From assembly GCF_023703325.1 (NCBI RefSeq), contig NZ_JAMQGM010000041.1:1-64000 (forward strand): a stretch of DNA of 64,000 bases, written 5' to 3'. The DNA is from Streptomyces meridianus. Its GTDB lineage: Bacteria > Actinomycetota > Actinomycetes > Streptomycetales > Streptomycetaceae. A program made the translations under genes and the position numbers. The notes under the pieces were generated by a model. It saw only the letters and a list, made by a program, of their open reading frames with translations, did no database searches and had not been told where the DNA came from. How positions within the stretch are numbered: the first letter of the stretch is position 1; each line of letters starts with the position of its first letter. This document shows positions 1 through 12,538 of the stretch, piece after piece.

Positions 1-1240
1 ACGGCAGCGCCCACAGCAGGGCCGCCGCGTGCACGGCCGCCCCGGCGAGGCACAGCCCGGTGGACAGACCCCGGCGCCCGGCGGCGAAGCGGGCACCGAG
101 CAGCAGACCCGTGGCACACACTGCGTAGCCGACGACGGCCCAGTCCTCCGGCAGGACGACACGCAGCATCCCACCGGACGCGGCCACGGCCGCGGCTCCG
201 CTCAGGACGGACCACCACACGTCCGGCCGGCGCAGGGCGGACCCGGACCGGGCGGCGGAGTCGTCGGCGGCTGCCCGGCCGGTGGGGAGGAGCACGCCCG
301 CCAGCCCACCGGCCGATACCCCGAGCAGTACGGCAGCGGCCTGCGCAGCATCGACCGCACCGGTGGCGGACAGCGACAGCCCCAGTGCGAGGCCCAGGCC
401 CGGGCAGCCGGTGACGGCTGCGCACACCGCGGCGGTTCCGCGCACCCCGGGGGTGCCGCGCCAACGGGTGACCAGGACGTCCAGCGTTGCCGTGGCGGTC
501 AGCGCCCAGGCGTGGCCGAGGGCGTCGGCGGAAAGTGCGACCGCCCAGAGAGAAAAGGGGAGTTGAGCCAGGCAGAGAGCCAACGGCAGAGGCAGCCGCA
601 GCCCGTTGGGGGACGCCGGACGCCGGCCCGCCCCGGCAGCGTCCGCCCCCGGCGAGTGCGCCCGGGCAGCAGGGGCCGGCCGGCCCGGCCACAGCCCGTA
701 GCCCGCCCAGACCAGGGCGAGCACGGTGCCCGCCACCGCGCCGTAGCCGGCCCAGCCGGAGTCCGGGAAGGCCAGAACGTGCAGGGCGTACGCGTCCAGC
801 ATCAGCAGCACCAGCCCCAGGCAGCCGACCACTTCGGCCGTCGCGGTCAGGGACCTGCGCAGCAGCGGGACCGGCGCCGTCAGCGCCGTGAGCGTCAGCA
901 GCGCCAGGACCGCGGCCCGTCCGCCCGTTCCCATGCGGCCCCAGCTGACCACCGTGAAGGCGGTCACCGCCACGGCCAGCAGGACCCCGCCGAGCCCCAG
1001 CAGGACGTTCTGCACGGTCGGCGGGTTCGTCTCTCGCCGGGCGGCCGGAGGCCCTTGCCACCCGGGCCGAGCGGGCCACGCTCCGGGCGGGGCCGGCGGG
1101 CCGGTGACCGGCCATCCGCTGCGGTTCAGCTGGGTGAGGATTTGTCCCCGCCGGGCCAGAAGCCGCGCGCGGTCGGCGTCGAGCCGGGCGAGCATCAGGT
1201 CAATCTGCTGCAGTTCCACGGCGGGAGGGACGCTGTTCAT
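1..1240 (-). CDS. Multi-spanning membrane protein, 3' end beyond the window
   Basis: The minus strand is open without a stop from an ATG at 1240 to the window edge, about 413 codons, so the C-terminus is missing. The first ~35 residues are charged and predicted helical (an LDADRARLLARRGQ-type segment), followed by a Pro/Trp-rich stretch and then repeated hydrophobic Ala/Leu/Val/Gly segments typical of many membrane helices. This architecture resembles the large Streptomyces integral membrane proteins annotated as SCO7613-like; that assignment is from memory of the family and no function is known. There is no clear Shine-Dalgarno sequence before this ATG. High confidence that it is coding, low on identity. 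Confidence 0.72.
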   Translation of the reverse strand, partial: MNSVPPAVELQQIDLMLARLDADRARLLARRGQILTQLNRSGWPVTGPPAPPGAWPARPGWQGPPAARRETNPPTVQNVLLGLGGVLLAVAVTAFTVVSWGRMGTGGRAAVLALLTLTALTAPVPLLRRSLTATAEVVGCLGLVLLMLDAYALHVLAFPDSGWAGYGAVAGTVLALVWAGYGLWPGRPAPAARAHSPGADAAGAGRRPASPNGLRLPLPLALCLAQLPFSLWAVALSADALGHAWALTATATLDVLVTRWRGTPGVRGTAAVCAAVTGCPGLGLALGLSLSATGAVDAAQAAAVLLGVSAGGLAGVLLPTGRAAADDSAARSGSALRRPDVWWSVLSGAAAVAASGGMLRVVLPEDWAVVGYAVCATGLLLGARFAAGRRGLSTGLCLAGAAVHAAALLWALP

Positions 1241-1346
1241 ACGGTGCAGTGTGGCCGCGCCGCCCGCCAGGGAACATGGGTACGTGTACTCAGGCCGATC
1301 GTGAGTACCGCTGTGCGCCGGACGCGCACGGCGGCACACTGGGGAA

Positions 1347-1793
1347 GTGGACTGGTGCAGCTACCGCTTCCGGAGCCTGTGGGACGTCGATGCCCCGCCC
1401 GACGCCGTCTTCGTGGTGCTCGGGACGCCCGAGGAGTATCCGCTCTGGTGGCCGCAGGTCCGTGAGGTGGCCCGGATCGACGACACCAGCGGCCGGGCCC
1501 GGTTCCGTTCGGTTCTGCCGTACGACCTGGTCGTCACCGTCCGCAAGGTCCGCCACGACCCTGCCGCCCGCGTGCTGGAGGTGGCGCTCGCGGGAGATCT
1601 CGACGGGTGGGCGCGGTGGACCGTCGCGCCGTGCGGCGGCGGTACCCGCGCCGTGTACGACCAGCAGGTCGAGGTGAGGCATCCGTTGATGCGCGTCCTC
1701 GCCGTCCCGGGGCGTCCGCTGTTCCGCGCCAACCACGCTCTGATGATGCGCGCGGGGCTGCACGGCCTGCGGGTCAGGCTCGCCGCCGGCTGA
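1347..1793 (+). CDS. SRPBCC / polyketide cyclase-like protein
   Basis: A 148-residue protein of START/SRPBCC size. The N-terminal segment (SLWDVDAPPDAVFVVL followed by a PLWWPQVREV-type segment) matches the usual first strand and helix of SRPBCC small-ligand-binding proteins, and a two-helix C-terminus closes the presumed cavity. The ligand and role cannot be read from the sequence. The GTG start has no properly spaced ribosome binding site, so the message may be leaderless. It stands alone, divergent from the membrane-protein gene upstream and followed by a tRNA gene. Confidence 0.75.
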   Translation: MDWCSYRFRSLWDVDAPPDAVFVVLGTPEEYPLWWPQVREVARIDDTSGRARFRSVLPYDLVVTVRKVRHDPAARVLEVALAGDLDGWARWTVAPCGGGTRAVYDQQVEVRHPLMRVLAVPGRPLFRANHALMMRAGLHGLRVRLAAG

Positions 1794-1851
1794 CCCCGCG
1801 GACCGGGCGCGGCGGCCGTGGCTCTCCTCCTCTGGCACCGGAGGTCGCGGT

Positions 1852-1881
1852 TTGTACGGAGTCCGCCGTGCGCTGTATGGT
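1852..1881 (+). promoter_or_regulatory. Vegetative promoter of the tRNA-Val gene
   Basis: TTGTAC at 1852-1857 and TATGGT at 1876-1881 are separated by 18 bases and resemble the -35 and -10 of the principal sigma factor. The predicted start would be about 30 bases before the tRNA. Sequence-only prediction. Confidence 0.55.
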
Positions 1882-1918
1882 TCTCGCCGTGCCGCGGTCC
1901 GCAATCCGCGACGCGAAG

Positions 1919-1990
1919 GGGCGATTAGCTCAGTGGGAGAGCGCTTCGTTCACACCGAAGAGGTCACTGGTTCGAACCCAGTATCGCCCA
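1919..1990 (+). tRNA. tRNA-Val (anticodon CAC)
   Basis: A complete cloverleaf can be drawn. Acceptor GGGCGAT (1919-1925) pairs with ATCGCCC (1983-1989), and A1990 is the discriminator. The anticodon stem is CTTCG/CGAAG around the loop TTCACAC, giving anticodon CAC, which reads GTG codons. The T arm is ACTGG-TTCGAAC-CCAGT. The 3' CCA is not encoded (the next bases are CCT), so it must be added enzymatically. A promoter and a terminator flank it, making it a single-gene unit. Confidence 0.96.
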
Positions 1991-1995
1991 CCTCC

Positions 1996-2026
1996 GAACC
2001 GGGCCGCCGGACAGGCGGCCCGGTTC
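1996..2026. terminator. Hairpin terminator after tRNA-Val
   Basis: A perfect 13-bp stem (GAACCGGGCCGCC with its complement) has a 5-base loop GGACA. It lies 6 bases after the tRNA and just before the end of the convergent exonuclease gene, so it can serve both directions. Confidence 0.7.
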
Positions 2027-2049
2027 TCTGCATTCGATGACGTCGACTC

Positions 2050-2772
2050 TCAGGCAGCGGTGGGCAGTTGGGGCCGGAGCGGCCAGGCGGGGTCGACCTG
2101 TTCCGGGGAGCCGTTGCGGGCGAACCACGCCTGGAGGCCCCGGGCCTGCCCGGCATGCCAGACGGCCTGGAGGCTGTGCAGCTCCGCCGCACTCAGCTGT
2201 TCCAGCCGCGGCGCGAAGCGTCGCCCCAGGGCCCGGACCAGGTCGAGCGACGCGACGGCGTCCGCCGCCGCGTCGTGCGCACCGGTCAACTCCACGCCGT
2301 AGTGAGCACACAAATCGGTGAGCGTGCGCCGCCCCTTGCGATACGGGTCGAGATGCTTGTCCAGAACGCGGGGATCGATCACGCACAGCGAGGCGCCGCC
2401 GAGGTATCCCGCCAGCGACGAGGCCCGGTGCCGACGCAACTCACGGTCGAGAAGCGTGAGATCGAAGGGCGCGTTCATCACCACCAGGGGCGTGCGCGCC
2501 GCGCAGAGCGCGGCCAGGGCCCGTGCGGCCTCCTCGACGACCGGTGACGGCCACCGGCCGTGGCGCTGCAGGTGCTCTTCTGTCAGCCCGTGCACGGCCG
2601 TCGCCTCCGCGGGTATCGGAACGCCGGGGCTCACCAGCCACCTGGTGACACGCGCCACCGCGCCCGGTGAGCTCTGGACGACCAGGGCAGCCGAAACCAT
2701 GCGATCACGCTCGACGTCGACCCCGGTCGTCTCGGTGTCGAATGCGGCGAGTGGTCCCTCGAACCAGTACAT
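2050..2772 (-). CDS. DnaQ-like 3'-5' exonuclease (DEDDh family)
   Basis: 240 residues spanning one exonuclease domain. All three Exo motifs are visible: FDTETTG near residue 11 (Exo I), NAPFDLTLLDREL near residue 100 (Exo II) and HDAAADA near residue 162 (Exo III, the DEDDh histidine type). It should cut 3' ends of DNA or RNA with two metal ions. It is not the long polymerase epsilon subunit: there is no UvrC-like or polymerase extension. AGGAG precedes the ATG. It is convergent with the tRNA and divergent from the DUF4365 gene. In vivo substrate unknown. Confidence 0.88.
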   Translation of the reverse strand: MYWFEGPLAAFDTETTGVDVERDRMVSAALVVQSSPGAVARVTRWLVSPGVPIPAEATAVHGLTEEHLQRHGRWPSPVVEEAARALAALCAARTPLVVMNAPFDLTLLDRELRRHRASSLAGYLGGASLCVIDPRVLDKHLDPYRKGRRTLTDLCAHYGVELTGAHDAAADAVASLDLVRALGRRFAPRLEQLSAAELHSLQAVWHAGQARGLQAWFARNGSPEQVDPAWPLRPQLPTAA

Positions 2773-2936
2773 GTCACCAACTCCTCGCCTTGGCGCGGAA
2801 CATGGGAATTGGTCCCGTTACGAGCTGGTGATACCCCGACCGTTTGCTGCGTACGCCGCCCGGAGACAACACAGATGACGGGCCGTCGGTGGCCGGCGTG
2901 CCCGCAGGGGGACATCGCGCGGAAGGCGCAGGGAAC

Positions 2937-3524
2937 ATGACGCTCGCTCATCCGGAACCCGGGGGCCTGCACCGCGACGGGGAACGTGGAAACCCGTCGG
3001 CTGCGGGGCCCGCACGGGGCCAACTCGCCGTCACCGCCTGCATGGAGACACTCCAGGTGGGATACCTCCACGCCGTCGCGGCGGCGGCCGGCTGCTCGCT
3101 GGCCCAGCCGTTCCCCGACAACGGCATCGACTGGCACGTCAGCCACAGCGCACCCGGCCATGCCGTGGACGACGAGGTGACCATCAAGGTCCAGCTGAAG
3201 TGCACCTACCAGATGCCGCCGCACCCCGCCGGGAGCTCCTTCTCGTTCACGCTCGACAACGACCACCTGGTGAAGCTCGCGCGCACACCGGTGGCCGTCC
3301 ACAAGATCCTCGTGGTGATGCTGGTGCCGAGGACCCCCGGGGAGTGGCTGAACGCCTCGCACGACCGGCTGGCCCTGCGGCACTGCTGCTACTGGACCAA
3401 CCTGGCAGGCCACCGCGTGACGGGGCGCACCCGTACCACCGTGCGGATTCCGACCGCGCGCATCTTCGACGACCGGGCGCTCTGCGAGATCATGACCCGG
3501 GTCGGGCGGGGAGGGAGACCGTGA
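2937..3524 (+). CDS. DUF4365 family protein, PD-(D/E)XK nuclease-like
   Basis: 195 residues from the ATG at 2937, chosen because the family similarity begins soon after it; the frame stays open to an upstream start at 2844. The segment from about residue 36 carries the DUF4365 hallmarks: E37 in the first helix, D65 in NGID, and Q86-x-K88 in VQLK. These are spaced like the E...D...QxK active site of PD-(D/E)XK nucleases, so metal-dependent nucleic-acid cleavage is plausible but inferred. Its TGA overlaps the ATG of the next gene (TGATG), so the two are translationally coupled. It diverges from the DnaQ-like exonuclease. Confidence 0.82.
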   Translation: MTLAHPEPGGLHRDGERGNPSAAGPARGQLAVTACMETLQVGYLHAVAAAAGCSLAQPFPDNGIDWHVSHSAPGHAVDDEVTIKVQLKCTYQMPPHPAGSSFSFTLDNDHLVKLARTPVAVHKILVVMLVPRTPGEWLNASHDRLALRHCCYWTNLAGHRVTGRTRTTVRIPTARIFDDRALCEIMTRVGRGGRP

Positions 3525-4750
3525 TGAACCTGCCGTTCGGCGAACCGTCCCCGGGCCGACGGCCCGGCGGAAGCTTCCCGCGGGAGGGTCTGGACCCCGG
3601 CCGGGTCGACCCGCACGTCCTCACCACCCTGCTCGCCCGGCGCGGCTGGCAGCGCCGCGGCGGAGAACCGGGCCGGTACGCGCGATGGACGCCCCCGCCC
3701 TCCGACCCCGGTGCCGCCAGCCTTCTCGTCCCTGAGAGCCTCGCCTTCCCCGACAGCCGGGATCTGCTCGCGGACGCCCTCACCGGACTGGTCCGCAGCC
3801 CCACCGCCACCGCGCGCCAGGTCCTGGTCGCCCTCGCCGTGCCCAGCGACGAGCTGCGCTGGTCGCGTCGGGTGCCGGATCGCGACACGGGTCCGTGCGG
3901 CAGCTCGCCGTGGCCGGCCGGGGACCGGCTGCGCCGGGGAGCCCGGGCGATGCTGCTGGCCGGGGCGCTGGGGGCACTCGGCCGGGCCGCACACCACGGG
4001 GCACGGCACCGCAGGCGCGCCGAGGAGGCCCTCGGACAGGTACTCGTCGGGCCGGAGTCCGCGGCCGGAACACTGACCGCCCATCTGCCCGTCGCGAGCG
4101 GGCGAGCCGCCGCGACCACACTGCTGCGGGCGCTTCACGCGGCCCGCGACGCAACCGACTATCACCGTGCGACCGGCCGGCCGGAGGCGTTCGACGCGGC
4201 CGTCCGGCTCGGTGTGAGCCGTGAGCTGACCGAGGCAGTCGTCGATCTCGTCCACGGCTCCGAGGGCATCCGCTTCGCGCTGGAATGGTCACCGGCCACG
4301 GGCGCCCCCGCCGGATTCTCCGCCGCGCCCGAACCGGTGGAGTTCTCCCCGGGCGATCTGCCCGCGCTGCGGGACGCCGGTGCCCGGTTCGTCCGCTGCG
4401 AACCGTCCGTTCCGGTCCGGCTGACCGGGGTCGTGGTGCGGATGCGGCGCCGCTCGGCGGCCGGACCGGGAACGGTGGCGCTGCGGGTCCTGACCGGGGC
4501 GGACGTCGGCCGGGTCCGGGCGGAACTCGACGAGAACTCGTACCGGACGGCCGTCCACGCCCACCTCGTCGGACTGCCGATCAGGGTGAGCGGACGCCTG
4601 GAGAGCAGTGGAGGCTTCCGCCGCCTCACCGGCGCCCGGGACGTGGAGCCGGTGCGCGTCGACGAGACCGAGCGGGACCGCATGATGAAGTCGCTGCACG
4701 AGAACCTGGGCTGCTTCGAGGAGGCATGGGGCGGCGAGGACGACGGGTAG
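3524..4750 (+). CDS. Uncharacterised partner of the DUF4365 protein
   Basis: 408 residues from ATG 3524 with GAGGGAG upstream; GTG 3521 is an alternative. I do not recognise a catalytic family. The N-terminal ~60 residues contain a basic, aromatic motif (LLARRGWQRRGG) that could bind nucleic acid. The middle is Ala/Arg-rich and helical. Residues near 310-390 alternate short strands (VRLTGVVVRMRRR, then LPIRVSGRLESSGGFRRLTG) in a pattern suggesting an OB-like beta barrel. It has no signal peptide or membrane segment. Coupling to the upstream gene suggests the two products act together. It lies just before thrS. Confidence 0.8.
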   Translation: MNLPFGEPSPGRRPGGSFPREGLDPGRVDPHVLTTLLARRGWQRRGGEPGRYARWTPPPSDPGAASLLVPESLAFPDSRDLLADALTGLVRSPTATARQVLVALAVPSDELRWSRRVPDRDTGPCGSSPWPAGDRLRRGARAMLLAGALGALGRAAHHGARHRRRAEEALGQVLVGPESAAGTLTAHLPVASGRAAATTLLRALHAARDATDYHRATGRPEAFDAAVRLGVSRELTEAVVDLVHGSEGIRFALEWSPATGAPAGFSAAPEPVEFSPGDLPALRDAGARFVRCEPSVPVRLTGVVVRMRRRSAAGPGTVALRVLTGADVGRVRAELDENSYRTAVHAHLVGLPIRVSGRLESSGGFRRLTGARDVEPVRVDETERDRMMKSLHENLGCFEEAWGGEDDG

Positions 4751-4938
4751 TCCGGTGCGGAACCGCTCCCGGAGGCGGGCCACGGCGCACCACCGGACGT
4801 GCGCCGGTGCCCGGGAAACGTTTAGCGGTCCGCCCCGGCGGATCGGTACCATCTGGGGGACCCGGGTGAATGCCTCCCCGGGGCCAGCGCCACCTGCGCA
4901 GCGTCCGCTGCCGCAGAGCCACGAGTCAGGAGAAACCG

Positions 4939-6918
4939 GTGTCGGACGTCCGTGTGATCATCCATCGCGATTCCGAGCGGGAAGAGCGCGTGGTGACCAC
5001 GGGCACGACGGCGGCGGACCTCTTCCCCGGCGATCGCAGCATCGTCGCCGCGCGGGTGACCGGTGAGCTCAGGGACCTGACCCACGAGATCGCCGAGGGC
5101 GACGTGGTCGAGCCGGTCCTGATCGGATCCGACGACGGCCTGAACATCCTGCGGCACTCGACCGCGCACGTCATGGCGCAGGCCGTGCAGGAGCTGTTCC
5201 CCGAGGCGAAGCTCGGCATCGGCCCGCCGATCAAGGACGGCTTCTACTACGACTTCGATGTCGAGAAGCCCTTCCACCCCGACGACCTCAAGCGCATCGA
5301 GAAGAAGATGCAGGAGATCGTCAAGCGCGGGCAGCGCTTCTCGCGCCGGGTGACCACCGACGAGGACGCCCGCGAGGAGCTCGCGGACGAGCCCTACAAG
5401 CTGGAGCTGATCGGCCTCAAGGGTTCGGCCGCCGAGGCAGCCGAGGGTGCCTCCGCAGAGGTCGGCGCCGGTGAGCTGACCATCTACGACAACCTGGACC
5501 CGAAGACGGGCGACCTGTGCTGGAAGGACCTGTGCCGGGGTCCGCACCTGCCGACCACCCGGAACATCCCGGCGTTCAAGCTGATGCGTTCTGCCGCCGC
5601 CTACTGGCGCGGCAGCGAGAAGAACCCGCAGCTTCAGCGCATCTACGGCACCGCCTGGCCGGCCAAGGACGAGCTCAAGGCGTACCTGGAGTTCCTCGCC
5701 GAGGCCGAGAAGCGCGACCACCGCAAGCTCGGCGCCGAGCTCGACCTGTTCTCCATCCCGGAGGAGCTGGGATCCGGCCTCGCCGTTTTCCACCCCAAGG
5801 GCGGCATCATCCGCCGGGAGATGGAGACATACTCGCGCGAGCGCCACCAGGCCGCGGACTACGAGTTCGTCAACACCCCGCACATCTCGAAGGAGCACCT
5901 CTTCGAGACCTCGGGGCACCTGCCGAACTATGCCGAGGGAATGTTCCCGCCCCTGGAGTTCGACGGGCAGAACTACCGCCTCAAGGCGATGAACTGCCCC
6001 ATGCACAACCTGATCTTCAAGGCACGCGGACGCTCCTACCGTGAACTGCCGCTGCGTCTCTTCGAGTTCGGCACGGTGTATCGCTACGAGAAGTCCGGCG
6101 TCGTGCACGGCCTGACCCGGGCCCGCGGCTTCACCCAGGACGACTCGCACATCTACTGCACGAAGGAGCAGATGGCGGACGAACTGGACTCGCTGCTCAC
6201 CTTCGTCCTGGATCTCCTGCGCGACTACGGGCTCAACGAGTTCGAGCTCGAGCTCTCCACCCGCGACGACTCCCCGAAGTTCATCGGTGAGGACGCGGAG
6301 TGGGAGGAGGCAACCGAGGCGCTGCGCCAGGCGGCCGAGAAGCAGGGCCTGCCGCTGGTCCCGGACCCGGGCGGCGCCGCCTACTACGGGCCGAAGATCT
6401 CGGTCCAGGCGAAGGACGCCATCGGCCGTTCCTGGCAGATGTCCACCATCCAGGTCGACTTCCAGCAGCCCAAGCGCTTCGAGCTCGAGTACACGGCGGC
6501 GGACGGTTCCCGTCAGCAGCCGGTGATGATCCACCGTGCCCTCTTCGGCTCGATCGAGCGGTTCTTCGCGGTGCTCCTGGAGCACTACGCCGGCGCCTTC
6601 CCGGCCTGGCTCGCCCCCGTCCAGGTCGTCGGCATCCCGATCGGCGACAGTCACGTGCCCTACCTGCGGGAGGTCGCGGCGAAGCTGAAGGCGCGCGGCA
6701 TCCGCGTCGAGGTGGACGCCTCCTCCGACCGGATGCAGAAGAAGATCCGCAACGCCCAGAAGTCCAAGATCCCTTACATGCTGATCGCGGGTGACGACGA
6801 TGTGGCGGCCGGTGCCGTCTCCTTCCGCTACCGCAACGGCGAGCAGAAGAACGGTGTGCCGGTCGACGAGGCGGTCGCCGAGATCGTCAAGGCCGTGGAG
6901 GACCGCGTGCAGGTCTGA
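4939..6918 (+). CDS. thrS: Threonine-tRNA ligase
   Basis: Cytoplasmic class II synthetase charging tRNA-Thr. 659 residues, full length. Domain order is TGS (about 1-65), editing/SAD-type domain (to about 230), class II catalytic core and C-terminal anticodon-binding domain. Visible hallmarks are the zinc-binding cysteine in MNCPMHN, the motif 2 region ([20 protein letters not shown]) and the motif 3 arginine region near [12 protein letters not shown]. The GTG at 4939 is preferred over the upstream in-frame ATG because AGGAG precedes it and the family begins there. No T-box leader is visible. The gene ends at a strong hairpin facing the channel gene. Confidence 0.97.
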
Positions 6919-6947
6919 CAAGAGGCCGCACCACGCCCACCGGCCTT

Positions 6948-6979
6948 CGTGCCCCCGCCCCGCACCGGGCGGGGGCACG
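6948..6979. terminator. Bidirectional hairpin between thrS and the channel gene
   Basis: A perfect 13-bp stem (CGTGCCCCCGCCC with its complement) and loop CGCACC lie between two convergent genes, 29 bases after thrS. Confidence 0.7.
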
Positions 6980-7029
6980 TGCCGTCCGGAGGCCGGAGCC
7001 GGTGCGCCGCGTGCGGGACCGGCCCGGCG

Positions 7030-7737
7030 TCAGTCCTCCGAACGCCTGCGGGCCTCCTGCGTCTTCTCCCGGAAGCTCTGCACCAGCCAGGACGAGAAGA
7101 CACCGACCACCGCGCCGATCAGGGCGACGCCGACCGCCATCATCAGTACCGCCAGGACGCGGCCCCGCCAAGTCACCGGCACCACGTCGCCGTAGCCGGT
7201 CGTCGAGAGCGTCACGCAGGCCCACCACACCGCGTCCCCGAACGTGAGGATCGACGCACCGGGTGCGCCCTGCTCCACCCGGTAGACCGCGAGACTCCCG
7301 GAGTAGCCGAGTAGCAGTGCGGTCAGCAGGGTCAGGGCCATCACCTGCCCCTCCAGGGACAGCCTCGGGTGCGGACGCCGGAGCTGGGCCGCGGCGTACA
7401 CCTGCACCATCCGCAGGGGGCGCAGCAACGGCAGCAGCACGACGAGCAGGTCGAGCCAGTGCTTGCGGGCGTAGACCCAGCGGCTGGGGCTGAGTCCCAG
7501 CCGCACCGCGTAGTCGATGATGAAGGCGGCCCAGGTGCCGAACGTGATCGTCAGCCAGAACTCGTGCCAGCCCGGTGACACCTCCGGTACGAGCACGTGC
7601 ACGGTGTAGGCGGCGAGATACAGCAGCGAGGCCACCAGCAGCGGCACCTGGCAGTACCGCTCCCACTCCGCAATCGCACTGTCACCGCGCACCGGCCAAG
7701 CATCGCCGTCCGTGGCGCTGCCCCGCCCCGGCGACAC
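7030..7737 (-). CDS. Voltage-gated-like potassium channel
   Basis: 235 residues from the likely GTG start at 7737; the frame extends further upstream but only by overlapping the divergent HIT gene. The protein shows a six-helix layout: hydrophobic segments from about residue 22 onwards, a weakly charged S4 region (LLRPLRMVQVYAAAQLRRP), then a pore loop with the K+ selectivity filter TTGYGD near residue 172 and a final helix. The C-terminal tail (EKTQEARRRSED) is short with no RCK/TrkA domain, so gating by a cytosolic ligand domain is not expected. Start uncertain because no clear ribosome binding site is seen. Confidence 0.85.
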   Translation of the reverse strand: MSPGRGSATDGDAWPVRGDSAIAEWERYCQVPLLVASLLYLAAYTVHVLVPEVSPGWHEFWLTITFGTWAAFIIDYAVRLGLSPSRWVYARKHWLDLLVVLLPLLRPLRMVQVYAAAQLRRPHPRLSLEGQVMALTLLTALLLGYSGSLAVYRVEQGAPGASILTFGDAVWWACVTLSTTGYGDVVPVTWRGRVLAVLMMAVGVALIGAVVGVFSSWLVQSFREKTQEARRRSED

Positions 7738-7758
7738 GCTTCGCTGCTGCGAAGTTCT

Positions 7759-8316
7759 ATGCTGCTCAGCATGACGAGTGAGCCGGAGCAGCAGATCGGA
7801 GTGGGAGCCCAGGACGCCTTCCAGCGTCTGTGGACCCCCCACCGGATGGCGTACATCCAGGGCCAGGGCAAGCCCACCGGTCCCGGCGCCGATGACGGCT
7901 GCCCGTTCTGCACCATCCCTGAGAAGTCCGATGAGGACGGCCTCGTCATCGCCCGCGGTGAGCACGTGTACGCGGTCCTCAACCTTTACCCCTACAACGG
8001 CGGCCACCTCATGGTGGTGCCGTTCAGGCACGTCGCGGACTACACGGAGCTCGACGGCCCGGAGACCGCGGAGCTCGCCGATCTGACCAAGCGGGCGATG
8101 ACGGCTCTGCGCAAGGCATCCGGGGCCCACGGGTTCAACATTGGCATGAACCAGGGCGGAGCCGCGGGGGCCGGTATCGCGGCTCATCTGCACCAGCACG
8201 TGGTGCCCCGGTGGGGCGGGGACTCGAACTTCATGCCGGTCGTCGGGCACACGCGGGTGCTCCCGCAGCTGCTCGCCGAAACCCGGCGGATGCTCGCCGA
8301 CGCCTGGCCCGTCTGA
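7759..8316 (+). CDS. HIT-family Ap4A phosphorylase homologue
   Basis: 185 residues from ATG 7759 (181 from ATG 7771; neither has a strong ribosome binding site). The histidine triad is HLHQHVVPRW near residue 150, preceded by NLYPYNGGHLMVVPFRHV. It closely resembles the mycobacterial Rv2613c protein, an atypical HIT phosphorylase that cleaves diadenosine tetraphosphate; the CPFC pair near residue 50 could bind a metal. As in mycobacteria it sits between thrS and the phosphatidylinositol genes, but here two minus-strand genes intervene before pgsA. Family assignment is firm; Ap4A as substrate is from the family. Confidence 0.9.
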   Translation: MLLSMTSEPEQQIGVGAQDAFQRLWTPHRMAYIQGQGKPTGPGADDGCPFCTIPEKSDEDGLVIARGEHVYAVLNLYPYNGGHLMVVPFRHVADYTELDGPETAELADLTKRAMTALRKASGAHGFNIGMNQGGAAGAGIAAHLHQHVVPRWGGDSNFMPVVGHTRVLPQLLAETRRMLADAWPV

Positions 8317-8339
8317 CCCCTCCCGCCCGGCGTCCGACC

Positions 8340-8360
8340 CCGGACCGACCTCCGGTCCGG
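8340..8360. terminator. Short hairpin between convergent genes
   Basis: CCGGACC and GGTCCGG form a 7-bp stem around a 7-base loop, between the stop codons of the HIT gene and the convergent membrane-protein gene. Weaker than the other terminators in the window. Confidence 0.35.
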
Positions 8361-8370
8361 CGGAACGGGA

Positions 8371-10035
8371 TCAGGCGTTGTAGAGGTCCGCCTTCTTCGG
8401 CTCGACGTCCTGCACCAGGTTGCTCATGAAGGTCGACCGGGTGCCGAAGACCTCGGTGTCCACGCCGTTCTCCTCCAGCATCCGCATGGTCGCGGCATGC
8501 ACGGAGCGCAGCACCGGGGTCGCGGCTCGCAGCGCGTCGTCCGCCATGAAGCGGTGCCGCCAGGGCGGGGACGCCCAGGCGTGCCGCAGGCCGAACGGTT
8601 CGGGCAGCGTGACCTTGCCGCCGAGGAAGTCGACGAACGGCGGGAACCAGGTGAAGGGGGCGCGCACTGCCAGCCGCACCACCTCGTCCGGCTTCACCAG
8701 GGGCTGGACGACCTCCTTCGTCTCCCAGAACCGCCAGCCGTTCGTGACCTCCTTCTTCTCCGGCTCCGGTTTGGTGGTGAAGAGCGAGTGCACCGGTCCG
8801 AGGGCGTGCCCGGTCACCTCGATGCGCAGGGTCTTGTGCAGCACCGTGACGGTGACCAGGAAGGTGAGGACCAGCTGGCCGTCCCACAGGACGAACTGGA
8901 CCCCGAGGTAGTGCCGGTTGCCGCTGCCGAACTGCTGCTCGTTGCAGATGCGCTGGATCTCGTGGCCCTTGATCCGGTAGGCGTCGGTGTCCGTGTTGTT
9001 GGGCCGGGTGACCTCCTTGGCACCCTCGCCGATCGGTGACACCACCCAGTGCGCCACGGACGGCTTGGGGAACCCGCCGGTGTGCAGCGGACCGCGTTCC
9101 AGCATCCGCAGCTGGTCGTGGATCGCGCGTATGACGTCCCAGCTGCGGAACGGGTTGAAGTCCTTGCCCGGTTCGGCCGAGACGAGCTCCTCGGCGAGGT
9201 GCCAGCTGCCCCACCGCGTGCCCATGCCCAGTATGCCCTTGGGCCCGGCGTAGAAGACGAGGTTGCTGTTCTGCTCGGCCGTCAGCTGCGCGAGGGCCTT
9301 GCGCAGCCGCTCGGCGCTCGTGTGGTTCGGGTCCTGCGGAACGGCCTCGGGGATCTTCGGGCCCAGACCGCTTCCGGTGAGCAGGCTCTCCCACCGGGCG
9401 CGCATGTCCTGCGCGCTGCGCTCGCAGATCTGCTTCGCCACCCACCAGCCGATGACCGGTGCCACCACCATCACCCGCAGGTACACGCCCCACAGCCCGG
9501 GCAGCGGCGGCCGGAGCAGGAACAGCAGGGACACGCCGCCCGCGACGACCAGCACGATCGAACCGAGTGCCGTCGCACGCCGGTTCTCGGGACCCGTGAT
9601 CGTCCGGCGCAGCTGGAAGGCGGTCAGCCACAGCAGGGTGCCGGGCAGGAACAGCAGGGCACTGAGCGCCATGACGACCGTCAGCTTGGCGTCCCGGGCC
9701 CGGCGTATCCGGGTCGCGGCCAGACAGTGCTCGACCACGGTCTGGGGCTCCGTCCCGAAGGACTGGATCAGGGGCTTGCGAGCCCCGCCGAGCAGCCGCA
9801 CCTGCACCGCCCGGGCGAACGCCTCTCCCAGATTCGGCTGGAACAGGGAGAGGAACGCGGACTTCGGCTTCTTGACGGTGGTCTTGTGCCACTCGTTGTC
9901 CGTCTTGAGGAACTCCTCCAGCGGGGTGTCGCGATAGGCCGCGGAAGCGAGGGCATGGGTCGCCGCGGTCTGACCGGCCGCCCCGGTCAGCGGAACCTGG
10001 GCCCCGGGGCTGAAGTCGAATCCGTCCTGTGCCAC
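8371..10035 (-). CDS. Uncharacterised membrane protein
   Basis: 554 residues from GTG 10035, chosen for the GGGGG tract five bases upstream; ATG 10059 in the same frame would add eight residues. About 115 soluble N-terminal residues (with a KTTVKKPKSAFLS segment) are followed by two pairs of hydrophobic helices (near LTVVMALSALLFLPGTLLW and at SIVLVVAGGVSLLFLL / YLRVMVVAPVIGWWVA), then a long soluble region, one further hydrophobic strand or helix (LVLTFLVTVTVL), and a soluble C-terminus. I recognise no domain. It follows the EF-G-like gene on the same strand after 305 bases, so it is probably separately transcribed. Confidence 0.78.
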   Translation of the reverse strand: MAQDGFDFSPGAQVPLTGAAGQTAATHALASAAYRDTPLEEFLKTDNEWHKTTVKKPKSAFLSLFQPNLGEAFARAVQVRLLGGARKPLIQSFGTEPQTVVEHCLAATRIRRARDAKLTVVMALSALLFLPGTLLWLTAFQLRRTITGPENRRATALGSIVLVVAGGVSLLFLLRPPLPGLWGVYLRVMVVAPVIGWWVAKQICERSAQDMRARWESLLTGSGLGPKIPEAVPQDPNHTSAERLRKALAQLTAEQNSNLVFYAGPKGILGMGTRWGSWHLAEELVSAEPGKDFNPFRSWDVIRAIHDQLRMLERGPLHTGGFPKPSVAHWVVSPIGEGAKEVTRPNNTDTDAYRIKGHEIQRICNEQQFGSGNRHYLGVQFVLWDGQLVLTFLVTVTVLHKTLRIEVTGHALGPVHSLFTTKPEPEKKEVTNGWRFWETKEVVQPLVKPDEVVRLAVRAPFTWFPPFVDFLGGKVTLPEPFGLRHAWASPPWRHRFMADDALRAATPVLRSVHAATMRMLEENGVDTEVFGTRSTFMSNLVQDVEPKKADLYNA

Positions 10036-10262
10036 TACCGCCCCCAACGCTGCGCGCATCCGATGGTGCGGCTCTGCCCGACTACCGCCCCGTGCACACC
10101 TTCTGAAGTGCATCTCAGCGTATCCGTGCGGGTGCCCATCCCGCAGGGGGTTGATCGGACGGGCCGTCAGCAGCCTGTTGGCGCGGAATGTCCGCGGCCC
10201 CGGGGCCCTCGCGGCCCCGCTGCCCGGGCGTCGCCTCTCGGTGAAGCCCAGGGACAGCCGTC

Positions 10263-10326
10263 GGCACGGGAACCCCTCCGCGGCGACCGGGCGAACTCCC
10301 GGTCCCTGCAGAGCCGTTCCCGTGCC
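10263..10326 (-). terminator. Branched hairpin after the EF-G-like gene
   Basis: An 11-bp outer stem (GGCACGGGAAC with GTTCCCGTGCC) encloses a 7-bp inner stem (GACCGGG/CCCGGTC). On the minus strand it starts 14 bases after the EF-G-like stop. The rest of the 305-base interval to 10035 holds no reading frame I can support. Confidence 0.5.
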
Positions 10327-10339
10327 TGTGGGCCGTGGG

Positions 10340-12538
10340 CTACGCGCCGGCCCCGGCTGTTTCGCGGATCTTCGACGCCACCTGGGCCGGCATCGGCTCG
10401 TGCCGGGCGTAGGCGCGGCTGAACCGTCCGGTGCCGTGCGACAGCGAGCGCAGATCGACGGCGTACCGGCCGATCTCCATCTCCGGGATCTCGGCCTTGA
10501 CCAGCGTGCGGCCCGGCCCGGACTGATCGGTGCCCACCACCCGGCCCCGCCGGCCCGACAGATCGCTCATCACCTGGCCCACGTACTCGTCGGCCACCAT
10601 GACCTGAACCTCCGAGACCGGCTCCAGCAGGTCGATCCGCACGGACGCGGCAGCCTCCCGGAGCGCCAAGGCCCCCGCGGCCTGGAACGCGGCATCGGAG
10701 GAGTCCACCGAGTGCGCCTTGCCGTCCACCAGGGTCACCCGGATGTCCACCAGCGGATATCCGGCGGCGATACCGCGGGCGGCCTGGGCCCGTACGCCCT
10801 TCTCCACCGACGGGATGAACTGCCGGGGCACGGCGCCGCCGACCACACGGTCGACGAACTCGATGCCCGACCCCGGCGGCAGCGGCTCCACCTCGATGTC
10901 GCAGATCGCGTACTGGCCGTGCCCGCCGGACTGCTTGACGTGCCGGCCGTGCCCGTTCGACGCGACGCCGAAGGTCTCGCGCAGCGCAACCCTGTGCGGC
11001 ACCGCATCGACCTGCACGCCGTACCGGCCGCGCAGCCGCTCCAGCACCACGCTCATGTGCGCCTCGCCCAGACACCACAGCACCACCTGACGGGTGTCCG
11101 GATTCTGCTCCAGCCGGGTCGTCGGGTCCTCGGCGACGAGCCGTGACAGGCCCTGCGAGAGCCGGTCCTCGTCCTGCTTGCTGTGCGCCTGCACGGCCAC
11201 CGGCAGCAGCGGGTCCGGCATCAGCCAGGGTTCCATCAACAGCGGATCGTCCTTCGACGACAACGTGTCGCCCGTCTCCGCCCGGCCGAGCTTCGCCGCG
11301 CAGACCAGATCGCCCGCGATCCCGCTCGGCAGGATGCGCTGCTGCTTGCCGAACGGCATCGACAGCGCGCCCACACGCTCGTCGACGTCGTGGTCCTCGT
11401 GACCGCGGTCCTCCAGGCCGTGGCCCGAGACGTGGACGGTCTCGTCCGGCCGCAGGGTGCCCGAGAAGATCCGGACCAGACTGATGCGCCCCACGTAGGG
11501 GTCGGAGAACGTCTTGACCACCTCGGCCGCCAACGGTCCGGCCGGGTCGCACTCGAGGGCGGGCCGCGGTTTGCCGTCCGGTGTCGTCACCGCCGGGAGT
11601 TCGCGCTCGGGAGGTGTGGGGAAACCGCCGGCGATCAGCTCCAGCAACTCCACCGTGCCCAGGCCGTACCGCGCGCCGTCGGCGGCCGGTGCGGCCGCGA
11701 GAACCGGGTGGAAGGACCCGCGCGCCACCGCCCTTTCCAGGTCCCCGACCAGGGTCTTGACGTCGATGTCCTCGCCGGCGAGATACCGGTCCATCAGGGT
11801 TTCGTCCTCGCTCTCGGCGATGATCCCCTCGATGAGCCGGTTGCGGGCCTCCTCGATCAGCGGCAGATGCTCCGGATCGGGCGGCTGCTCCGCGCGCTCC
11901 CCGTTCGAGTAGTCGAAGATGCGCTGGGAGAGCAGCCCGATGAGCCCGACGACCGGCGCGTGTCCGTCCCCCCCCGCCTCGCCGTGCAGCGGCAGGTAGA
12001 GGGGCAGGACCGCGTCCGGGTCCTCGCCGCCGAAGGTGCGCGCGCAGATCGCCGTCATCTCGTCGAAGTCGGCCCGCGCCGCCTCGAGATGGGTGACGAC
12101 GATGGCTCGCGGCATGCCCACGGCCGCGCACTCGTCCCAGACCATCCGGGTCGAGCCGTCCACGCCGTCGGAAGCCGAGACGACGAAGAGGGCCGCGTCC
12201 GCCGCTCGCAGACCGGCCCTCAACTCTCCGACGAAATCGGCGTATCCGGGGGTGTCCAGGATATTGATCTTGATGCCGTCCCATTCCACGGGGACCAGCG
12301 ACAGCTGGACGGAGCGCTGCCGGCTCTGCTCGATCTCGTCGTAGTCGGAGAGCGTGGTCCCGTCCTCGACCCGCCCCGGCCGGTTGATCGCCCCGGCCGC
12401 CAGGGCGAGCGCCTCCACCAGCGTGGTCTTGCCCGATCCGCTGTGGCCGACCAGCACGACGTTCCGTATCGCGGAGGGCCGGTCGGCCGTTGCCGCCCTG
12501 CCGGCGGCTCCGGGCTGTGTGCGTGTTTTGTCGCCCAT
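10340..12538 (-). CDS. EF-G-like translational GTPase paralogue (EF-G2 type)
   Basis: 732 residues with the five-domain layout of elongation factor G. Start is ATG 12538 with GGTGAGG upstream. The P-loop GHSGSGKTT is intact (31-39). Other G motifs deviate: DTPGY at 95-99 has Tyr where EF-G has the catalytic His, the NKMD position reads THLE (149-152), and the RGITI switch reads QRSVQL. The C-terminal domains look well conserved (VVGGAVPRQFIPSVEKG; MVADEYVGQVMSDLSGRRG). The mycobacterial EF-G2 paralogue was reported to bind GTP without ribosome-stimulated hydrolysis, which fits. It is not the housekeeping fusA, which normally lies in the str operon. Confidence 0.9.
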   Translation of the reverse strand: MGDKTRTQPGAAGRAATADRPSAIRNVVLVGHSGSGKTTLVEALALAAGAINRPGRVEDGTTLSDYDEIEQSRQRSVQLSLVPVEWDGIKINILDTPGYADFVGELRAGLRAADAALFVVSASDGVDGSTRMVWDECAAVGMPRAIVVTHLEAARADFDEMTAICARTFGGEDPDAVLPLYLPLHGEAGGDGHAPVVGLIGLLSQRIFDYSNGERAEQPPDPEHLPLIEEARNRLIEGIIAESEDETLMDRYLAGEDIDVKTLVGDLERAVARGSFHPVLAAAPAADGARYGLGTVELLELIAGGFPTPPERELPAVTTPDGKPRPALECDPAGPLAAEVVKTFSDPYVGRISLVRIFSGTLRPDETVHVSGHGLEDRGHEDHDVDERVGALSMPFGKQQRILPSGIAGDLVCAAKLGRAETGDTLSSKDDPLLMEPWLMPDPLLPVAVQAHSKQDEDRLSQGLSRLVAEDPTTRLEQNPDTRQVVLWCLGEAHMSVVLERLRGRYGVQVDAVPHRVALRETFGVASNGHGRHVKQSGGHGQYAICDIEVEPLPPGSGIEFVDRVVGGAVPRQFIPSVEKGVRAQAARGIAAGYPLVDIRVTLVDGKAHSVDSSDAAFQAAGALALREAAASVRIDLLEPVSEVQVMVADEYVGQVMSDLSGRRGRVVGTDQSGPGRTLVKAEIPEMEIGRYAVDLRSLSHGTGRFSRAYARHEPMPAQVASKIRETAGAGA

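What the first reader, a model, noticed from the sequence alone, without database searches (positions are those of the whole stretch)
2050..4750. DUF4365 nuclease-like protein coupled to an uncharacterised partner, divergent from a DnaQ-like exonuclease
The 195-residue protein shows E37, D65 and Q86-x-K88 spaced like a PD-(D/E)XK active site. Its stop overlaps the start of a 408-residue protein with a basic N-terminus and an OB-like C-terminus that I cannot assign. A DEDDh exonuclease with all three Exo motifs diverges from the same 164-base region. Together they could form a nucleic-acid processing, repair or defence module that has gone undescribed because it sits beside thrS in a core region.
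Basis: partly seen in the sequence, partly recalled or inferred. Interest (0 to 1): 0.62.

Follow-up and report, generated by a model that had tools for sequence, protein, structure and literature searches.

The report
Two-gene nuclease immunity candidate beside thrS
Next to a core tRNA-synthetase gene, this Streptomyces-type genome carries a tightly coupled nuclease-plus-partner gene pair that a defence database already lists as an antiphage candidate; here it looks like an immune pair that has settled into the core genome.

Summary
The genes are real, but the pair is not uncatalogued. A (2937-3524) is a DUF4365 nuclease; B (3524-4750) is its partner. Both match PADLOC's candidate antiphage system PDC-M02 (E 5e-89 and 1e-154). 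D61, D65, Q86 and K88 are invariant in 111 of 111 aligned A proteins; E37 is not. A and B stay together: 61 of 101 family genomes at thrS and 36 of 38 divergent loci, among them plasmids and two phage records. Some divergent pairs lie beside DISARM or Druantia genes (neighbours picked by eye). B is modelled as a HicA-like N-domain (tentative), a ferredoxin-like middle and an SSB-like OB fold. The exonuclease is a positional neighbour: none in 38 divergent loci; kept where A-B is absent (14 of 101). The thrS-linked B proteins lack the family motif TxxGS[F/Y] (0 of 59, against 30 of 38 divergent), while A's site is intact. Best reading: B senses infection and unleashes A on DNA. I found no functional test. 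Novelty is modest: a catalogued candidate, newly given an anatomy and an unusual core-genome residence.

The parts
1919..1992 (+). tRNA-Val (anticodon CAC), left border of the presence/absence cassette
   Evidence: ARAGORN, Rfam tRNA; tRNA-Val(CAC) is the nearest tRNA beside the exonuclease in 77 of 77 named loci that hold the exonuclease
2050..2772 (-). DnaQ-like DEDDh 3'-5' exonuclease; positional neighbour, not part of the A-B system
   Evidence: NCBIfam NF005927 291.9 bits, Pfam RNase_T E 2.5e-16; no homologue in 38 divergent A-B loci
2827..2835 (.). conserved box GGTGATACC in the gap between exonuclease and A; its TGATACC core goes with the exonuclease
   Evidence: TGATACCC in 76 of 78 gaps; TGATACC 56-85 nt from the exonuclease start in those 76, but 46-175 nt from A; present in 4 of 5 fetched loci without A-B
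2937..3524 (+). gene A: DUF4365 / PDC-M02A nuclease, 195 aa; conserved D61, D65, Q86, K88
   Evidence: Pfam PF14280, PADLOC PDLC04276 E 5.1e-89, conservation
3524..4750 (+). gene B: PDC-M02B partner, 408 aa, no Pfam family
   Evidence: PADLOC PDLC04317 E 9.7e-155; Pfam and NCBIfam give nothing over a cut-off
3599..3841 (+). B N-domain (about residues 26-106): HicA-like dsRBD fold, predicted and tentative; the one module found in every B variant seen
   Evidence: models; VIA-align 1whz Z 6.3, 5yrz Z 5.6, 6g26 Z 5.3; short forms of B
3845..4288 (+). B middle domain (about residues 108-255): predicted ferredoxin-like alpha/beta domain
   Evidence: secondary structure; only weak fold matches, Z up to 4.4
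4049..4072 (+). B hairpin (residues 176-183), where the family has TxxGS[F/Y] and this clade does not
   Evidence: 30 of 38 divergent B, 0 of 59 thrS-linked B
4406..4657 (+). B C-terminal OB fold (residues 295-378), predicted
   Evidence: VIA-align SilF Z 10.0, SSBb 9.4, PriB 8.9, RecO 8.7, RPA 8.5
4939..6918 (+). thrS, threonyl-tRNA synthetase, right border of the cassette
   Evidence: NCBIfam TIGR00418 thrS 657 bits, cut-off 383.65; strong match in 101 of 101 family genomes

Best explanation
A and B are a two-gene immune system of the PDC-M02 kind. A is a DUF4365 (DREN) PD-(D/E)XK-type nuclease that is probably idle alone. B is the sensor and scaffold: its N-domain is the constant module and probably holds A, while the middle domain and the SSB-like OB fold probably recognise an infection signal such as phage single-stranded DNA, a phage ssDNA-binding protein or a nucleotide ligand. 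On sensing, B brings copies of A together and A degrades DNA without sequence preference, stopping phage growth at the cost of the cell. In the Streptomyces family one such pair settled in the gap between tRNA-Val(CAC) and thrS, was passed down mostly by descent and was lost many times. Shown here: the gene pair, its linkage, the conserved active-site residues, predicted domains of B, mobile relatives and the presence/absence pattern. Inferred: nuclease activity of this A, binding of A by B, the trigger and the outcome.
For: A is DUF4365 with D61, D65, Q86 and K88 in 111 of 111 sequences. In tested DUF4365 proteins this site matters: three of the four motif residues, mutated singly, abolish EAT16 toxicity (PMC11297309, passage); Q62A/K64A is the inactive TmuRE mutant of PMC10810196 (passages); NbaSPARDA's DREN domain alone has undetectable activity and is switched on by tetramerisation (PMC12205087, passages). 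A's profile aligns to solved DUF4365 chains 9qbq and 9qbp with D65, Q86 and K88 in register, at weak E 0.074 and 0.18. Linkage: 61 of 101 family genomes hold both at thrS; 36 of 38 divergent loci have A just before B. Both match PDC-M02 models, as do all ten relatives' proteins scanned (two A, eight B, from eight loci). Relatives lie on plasmids, at the left end of a Mycobacterium prophage record and in Leptospira phage LE1; some lie beside DISARM, Druantia or GmrSD-type genes. B is predicted with an SSB-like OB fold and a HicA-like N-domain. The pair is dispensable, and usually absent as a unit.
Against: I found no phage, toxicity or nuclease data for any PDC-M02 pair; the preprint behind the PDC names was not seen and could hold some. 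The window copy sits in a core region: of five nearby proteins scanned against PADLOC, only a HIT protein matched, weakly, ThsC. It is constrained about as strongly as thrS (median dN/dS of A 0.17, thrS 0.21), which is unusual for defence. Its B lacks the family's TxxGS[F/Y] motif, so its trigger may differ. HicA-like matches are below Z 8 and middle-domain matches are weaker. The neighbours scanned for defence genes were picked by eye and have no control. Two other PDC predictions, PDC-M63AB and PDC-S04, showed no defence when tested (PMC12409345, passage).
Confidence: 0.62

Rival explanations
1. Housekeeping DNA repair or replication pair: B binds single-stranded DNA through its OB fold and recruits A to process damaged or stalled DNA; the neighbouring exonuclease may help.
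For: Syntenic and apparently mostly vertical: distances of B and A correlate with those of thrS (r 0.70 and 0.60, n 78); purifying selection; SSB-, PriB- and RecO-like OB matches; exonuclease divergently adjacent in 60 of 61 pair-bearing family genomes.
Against: Dispensable: 35 of 40 family genomes without an intact pair at thrS have no A match at E 1e-5. Relatives sit on plasmids, in phages and beside defence genes. The exonuclease does not accompany the 38 divergent pairs.
Confidence: 0.15
2. Toxin-antitoxin pair: A is a DNase toxin and B its antitoxin, kept on plasmids and phages for stability.
For: Overlapping genes, plasmid and phage carriage, HicA-like domain, a DUF4365 protein that is toxic when expressed (PMC11297309, passage).
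Against: B is twice A's size, multi-domain and faster-evolving; the HicA-like fold is that of a toxin, not an antitoxin, and antitoxin genes usually come first (both recalled). The DREN domain of SPARDA alone is inactive (PMC12205087, passage). This reading does not exclude defence, since toxin-antitoxin pairs can act against phage.
Confidence: 0.13
3. Three-gene nucleic-acid module in which the DEDDh exonuclease acts with A and B.
For: Divergent from one 164-nt gap in the window, and adjacent in 60 of 61 pair-bearing family genomes.
Against: No exonuclease homologue in 38 divergent loci; exonuclease kept at thrS without A-B in 14 genomes; the conserved box in the gap goes with the exonuclease; a second exonuclease of this type lies elsewhere in the window's genome.
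Confidence: 0.05

Closest known systems
PADLOC candidate system PDC-M02 (A and B); PDC candidates are cited to Payne et al., bioRxiv 2024, in PMC12988326 (passage; preprint not seen)
   Same: Both proteins match at E 5e-89 and 1e-154; ten proteins of relatives from several phyla match the same model set; same gene order
   Different: Fixed between tRNA-Val and thrS; B lacks TxxGS[F/Y]. PADLOC's best models for this clade (PDLC04276, PDLC04317) suggest the clade is already inside the catalogue
SPARDA: short Argonaute with DUF4365 (DREN)-APAZ nuclease
   Same: DUF4365 nuclease with GxD...QxK; two-gene system
   Different: No Argonaute or APAZ match: A is a lone domain and B has another predicted make-up
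EAT16, DUF4365 toxin of an extracellular contractile injection system (PMC11297309)
   Same: Same four motif residues D, D, Q, K (passage)
   Different: Injected toxin with a second domain
HicA (HicBA toxin-antitoxin)
   Same: B's N-domain has HicA-type entries as best fold matches (Z 5.3-6.3; 1whz and 5yrz recalled as HicA-type)
   Different: No conserved histidine in B's N-domain; part of a large protein
SSB, PriB and RecO OB folds
   Same: B's C-domain matches them (Z about 8-9.4)
   Different: Fused to other domains; 9-22% identity in most rows shown; DNA binding untested

Membership tests
DUF4365 (PF14280) | profile match over the curated cut-off | tested here: met
   74.8 bits, cut-off 24.3
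DUF4365 (PF14280) | motif DxGxD...QxK | tested here: met
   D61-N-G63-I-D65 and Q86-L-K88; D61, D65, Q86, K88 in 111 of 111
PD-(D/E)XK nuclease | active-site residues clustered in a PD-(D/E)XK fold | not tested
   no model of A was made; the fold is taken from DUF4365 literature (passages)
PD-(D/E)XK nuclease | metal-dependent DNA cleavage | not testable with these tools
   needs purified protein
PDC-M02 candidate system | A and B both match the PADLOC models | tested here: met
   relatives
PDC-M02 candidate system | adjacent genes, A then B, same strand | tested here: met
   window; 36 of 38 divergent loci; 61 of 101 family genomes
PDC-M02 candidate system | antiphage activity | not testable with these tools
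   no functional study met in paper searches; library incomplete
SPARDA | short Argonaute gene and APAZ domain with DUF4365 | tested here: not met
   A and B have no Argonaute or APAZ match in Pfam or PADLOC; the genes on either side are an exonuclease and thrS
HicA toxin | dsRBD-like HicA fold | tested here: inconclusive
   B N-domain Z 6.3, 5.6 and 5.3, below Z 8
HicA toxin | catalytic histidine (recalled) | tested here: not met
   no His among invariant or nearly invariant columns of 16 B sequences
OB fold / SSB-like | five-stranded OB barrel | tested here: met
   predicted model: five strands in residues 296-376, Z up to 10.0 to OB entries
OB fold / SSB-like | single-stranded DNA binding | not testable with these tools
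   needs binding assays
DnaQ-like DEDDh exonuclease (neighbour) | subfamily profile match over cut-off | tested here: met
   NF005927 291.9 bits, cut-off 186

The most novel reading that the evidence does not exclude
The thrS-resident clade is a domesticated immune pair: a mobile PDC-M02 cassette entered the tRNA-Val/thrS gap in an ancestor of the family, kept its nuclease site, rewrote the sensor's signature hairpin (T to A, S to G, and a nearby D to E) and now answers a chromosomal signal, such as exposed single-stranded DNA during replication stress or mycelial development, with programmed DNA degradation rather than, or as well as, phage defence.
Probability: 0.2. Interest if true: 0.72.

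Novelty: new member of a known kind. Interest (0 to 1): 0.45.

Why it matters
PDC-M02 is a candidate on which I found no experiment. This work gives it a testable anatomy: a DREN-type effector whose relatives have known dead mutants, and a partner made of an adapter-like domain, a middle domain and an SSB-like OB fold. It also supplies a genetically tractable family, Streptomyces, in which the pair is a natural presence/absence cassette with closed empty sites for comparison. If the thrS copy is active, many Streptomyces carry a core-located DNA-degrading immune system; if it has been repurposed, it is a case of an immune pair turned to host use.

Tried and rejected
Exonuclease as a third component: rejected. 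The conserved box in the exonuclease-A gap as an A-B operator: rejected, since it lies 56-85 nt from the exonuclease start in 76 of 78 loci and is present in 4 of 5 fetched loci without A-B, though there at about 67-110 nt. RNA element: only the tRNA matched in window 1-12000. Phylum-wide search with diverse alignments gave 7 of 296 genomes for B and 6 of 296 for A, all in the window's genus. I do not read this as absence elsewhere, because only 6 and 11 candidates per genome were scored, and searches found relatives outside it. IMG/VR scans with two A queries confirmed no relative. tblastn of a Gluconobacter B in phages found nothing at E 0.01. Profile search of B in the PDB: nothing at E 10. 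The middle domain's matches to nucleotide cyclases and GGDEF domains (Z about 4; weak rows for cyclases and Csm1/Cmr2) are too weak to claim. OB rows filled the full-length lists; no row reached E 0.001, and complement and other OB-like rows are mixed in. Azospirillum B's weak Acb2/Tad1 hairpin match (E 0.016, under its cut-off) was dropped. A paper listed for SCO1531 (locus tag recalled) showed no such passage in its main text.

A fused A-B chain was considered for a complex prediction; a read-through translation was made but not folded, because the tool returns no contacts and only two jobs were allowed. I used them on B and on B residues 20-293.

I corrected these points: E37 counts (two thrS-linked sequences had been counted as divergent), the number of B proteins without a middle domain, the number of plasmid records fetched and the number of loci behind the defence-neighbour scan.
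Full report
WHAT IS THERE. The window lies on contig C36 of a 5.64-Mb genome whose closest named relatives found are Streptomyces. In order, on the plus strand unless noted: an ORF at 1347-1793 (SRPBCC-like by my reading; no NCBIfam match), tRNA-Val(CAC) 1919-1992, a DnaQ-like exonuclease on the minus strand (2050-2772), gene A (2937-3524), gene B (3524-4750) and thrS (4939-6918). A is Pfam DUF4365. B has no Pfam or NCBIfam family above cut-off. PADLOC-DB scores A as PDC-M02A (E 5.1e-89) and B as PDC-M02B (E 9.7e-155). PDC names are called unpublished candidate systems of Payne et al. [quoted passage not shown] I did not see the preprint, so a test of PDC-M02 in it is not excluded. 'PDC-M02' occurs in no paper of the library and DUF4365 in ten. 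Of those ten I saw passages of three and the listing of the rest; none seen describes this pair. The library holds no bioRxiv preprints and lacks most subscription papers.

ACTIVE SITE OF A. I aligned 111 A proteins: 80 thrS-linked (window, 77 named Streptomyces loci, two from other genera) and 31 divergent. D61, D65, Q86 and K88 are present in 111 of 111. E37 is present in 80 of 80 thrS-linked and 18 of 31 divergent sequences. Of the 13 without it, 8 carry Glu four residues later, one helical turn away; two have S flanked by Glu, two have Q, and one has neither (the printed table counts L061 and L062 as divergent, and I moved them). The DUF4365 motif is given as DxGxD...QxK in PMC11297309, where three of four single mutants of EAT16 lose toxicity (passage). 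PMC10810196 used Q62A/K64A as the inactive TmuRE mutant (passages). In PMC12205087 the isolated DREN (DUF4365) domain had undetectable activity and was activated by tetramerisation in an Argonaute filament (passages). A profile of A meets two solved DUF4365 chains, 9qbq and 9qbp, weakly (E 0.074 and 0.18), with D65, Q86 and K88 in register. I did not model A, so spatial clustering is inferred from the family.

ANATOMY OF B. An AlphaFold2 model from 59 sequences has mean pLDDT 86.0 and pTM 0.76. Residues 295-378 form an OB fold: VIA-align gives SilF Z 10.0, mycobacterial SSBb 9.4, a small Streptomyces SSB 9.1, PriB 8.9 and RecO 8.7 over 70-86 residues. Foldseek's first rows are mostly RPA and SSB at E about 1e-3 to 1e-2, with complement rows among them and none at or below 0.001. 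Residues 20-293 folded alone reach pLDDT 87.9 and pTM 0.85. For their N-domain (alpha-beta-beta-beta-alpha) the top rows are 1whz Z 6.3 (a Thermus protein, recalled as HicA-type), 5yrz Z 5.6 (a toxin-antitoxin complex, recalled as HicBA) and 6g26 Z 5.3 (HicAB), then RnlA at 4.9. All are below Z 8, so the HicA-like label is tentative, and no histidine is conserved there. The middle domain reads as a ferredoxin-like beta-alpha-beta-beta-alpha-beta unit with only weak matches. The best viral-model match to residues 20-293 is a 381-residue protein of Leptospira phage LE1 (E 3e-9). LE1 gp37, the B of an A-B pair, has the same length and is presumably that protein.

B IS MODULAR. Most B proteins seen have N-domain, middle and OB. 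Two Nostoc plasmid forms (179 and 180 aa) keep N-domain and OB only. A form in a related genus (L116, 270 aa, PADLOC PDLC04327) keeps N-domain and middle only. The Azospirillum form (185 aa) keeps the N-domain plus a helical tail. The N-domain is the constant part, which suggests that it serves A (inference).

LINKAGE AND SPREAD. In 101 family genomes A matched in 66 and B in 64. Using coordinates that I copied, the thrS locus is: exonuclease-A-B-thrS in 60; exonuclease-thrS without A-B in 14 (gap 231-906 nt); none of the three in 22; A-B without exonuclease in 1; a B remnant in 2; exonuclease with an A remnant in 1; exonuclease on another contig in 1. Five of the 60 have A or B matched in pieces (G016, G037, G071, G074, G094) and may be broken or badly assembled. 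Eight B matches among the 60 contain one stop; in the seven whose locus I held it lies in the last codons of the match. All 80 have B and thrS and 77 have all four genes; the other three (L123, L130, L156) begin near a contig end. In 62 of 77, A and B overlap by 4 or 1 nt with the starts that my script chose. Outside the thrS site I examined 38 divergent loci, fetched through A or B hits. 36 have A just before B on the same strand; one (Ornithinimicrobium plasmid) has A split over two frames; one (Pigmentibacter plasmid) has no A, with an IS6 transposase upstream. They include plasmids of Cyanobacteria, Alpha- and Betaproteobacteria, Clostridia, Spirochaetota and Actinomycetota, a Mycobacterium abscessus prophage record and the temperate Leptospira phage LE1. 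Of the 27 plasmid records with an A match I fetched 12: ten by that hit and two through B hits.

DEFENCE NEIGHBOURS. In ten neighbouring proteins that I picked by eye from eight loci, PADLOC named DISARM DrmA and DrmB (L064), DrmA (L082), DrmD plus a GmrSD/Orf5-type protein (L107), Druantia DruH (L105) and DruA (L112), a GmrSD/HEC-06-like protein (L201), a HerA/mad8-like protein (weak, L109) and candidate PDC-S27 (L079). The sample is biased by my choice and has no control; several annotated plasmid loci (for example L097, L098, L101) show no obvious defence neighbour. Around the window copy, one of five proteins matched: a HIT protein, weakly, to ThsC.

A CASSETTE BETWEEN tRNA-Val AND thrS. 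In 77 of 77 named loci with the exonuclease the nearest tRNA is tRNA-Val(CAC), within 211 nt of its open frame in 73. I fetched 12 of the 22 genomes with none of the three genes. In 7 of 12, tRNA-Val(CAC) lies about 165-365 nt from thrS, a closed site; in the other 5 no tRNA lies in the fetched 6 kb next to thrS, or only one about 6 kb away. Of 40 genomes in which one search found no intact pair at thrS, 35 have no A match anywhere at E 1e-5, 4 have an ectopic A and 1 has the remnant. The pair is thus dispensable and often absent, mostly as a unit. Which absences are losses and which are primary I did not reconstruct; the remnants in G044, G068 and G075 show some losses.

INHERITANCE AND CONSTRAINT. 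Across 78 sequences, pairwise distances correlate: A with B r 0.80, B with thrS 0.70, A with thrS 0.60. Median dN/dS is 0.174 for A, 0.285 for B, 0.208 for the exonuclease and 0.213 for thrS (77 loci). So the pair is under selection, and the presumed sensor changes faster than the nuclease. In trees of A and of B the thrS-linked copies group together (support 0.49 and 0.90), with the same two ectopic pairs from the window's family and genus, L063 and L108, as sisters (parent support 0.92 and 1.0).

A REWRITTEN SENSOR MOTIF. Divergent B proteins share TxxGS[F/Y] in a predicted hairpin of the middle domain: 30 of 38 have it, including both sister pairs. Of the other 8, three lack the middle domain (L096, L098, L204) and five have it without the motif (L107, L109, L112, L116, L117). 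It is in 0 of 59 thrS-linked B proteins, which have Ala at 178 (46 of 59), Gly at 181 (56 of 59) and Glu for the family's Asp at 110 (59 of 59), while R115, R194, W42 and D77 are kept. The nuclease site is unchanged. This suggests a changed trigger or ligand in the thrS clade; what it means is unknown.

MECHANISM. The most likely mechanism is an activated-nuclease immune system: B keeps A idle or apart, detects infection through its middle or OB domain, assembles A, and A degrades DNA. The closest worked example of activation is SPARDA, which shares only the DUF4365 domain. A host-directed role for the thrS clade remains possible and is my novel case. The exonuclease is best seen as a neighbour with its own upstream element: the TGATACC box lies 56-85 nt from the exonuclease start in 76 of 78 loci, at variable distance from A, and is present in 4 of 5 fetched loci without A-B.

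VERDICT. Observation confirmed; interpretation partly right. The family is a catalogued candidate, so novelty is limited. What is new here, as far as these searches show, is B's predicted anatomy and modularity, the tRNA-Val/thrS cassette with closed empty sites, and the absence of B's signature motif in the thrS clade.

Noticed in passing
window 1919-4938: The gap between tRNA-Val(CAC) and thrS is a presence/absence site in the family: exonuclease-A-B, exonuclease alone, or closed. In five of twelve genomes without the module thrS has other upstream neighbours.
   Followed up: partly
window 2827-2835: A conserved box (TGATACCC in 76 of 78) lies 56-85 nt from the exonuclease start and may be its promoter or operator.
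   Followed up: partly
L098 7475-8032 (Azospirillum plasmid): Short B with the N-domain and a helical tail that weakly matches the Acb2/Tad1 hairpin family (E 0.016, under the cut-off).
   Followed up: no
L199 4989-6667 (Leptospira phage LE1): A temperate phage carries an A-B pair, a possible superinfection-exclusion cassette.
   Followed up: partly
BFVD entry A0A482MK90 (Nodularia phage): A 101-residue phage protein resembles part of B residues 20-293 over 82 columns (Foldseek E 0.011, 24% identity), by size probably the N-domain; it could be a decoy against the system or a plain HicA-like protein.
   Followed up: no
window 7597-8316: HIT-family protein downstream of thrS with a weak match to Thoeris ThsC (E 1.9e-9); probably an ordinary HIT hydrolase.
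   Followed up: no
G000:C6:44856-45560: A second exonuclease, 49% identical to the window's, lies elsewhere in the genome.
   Followed up: no
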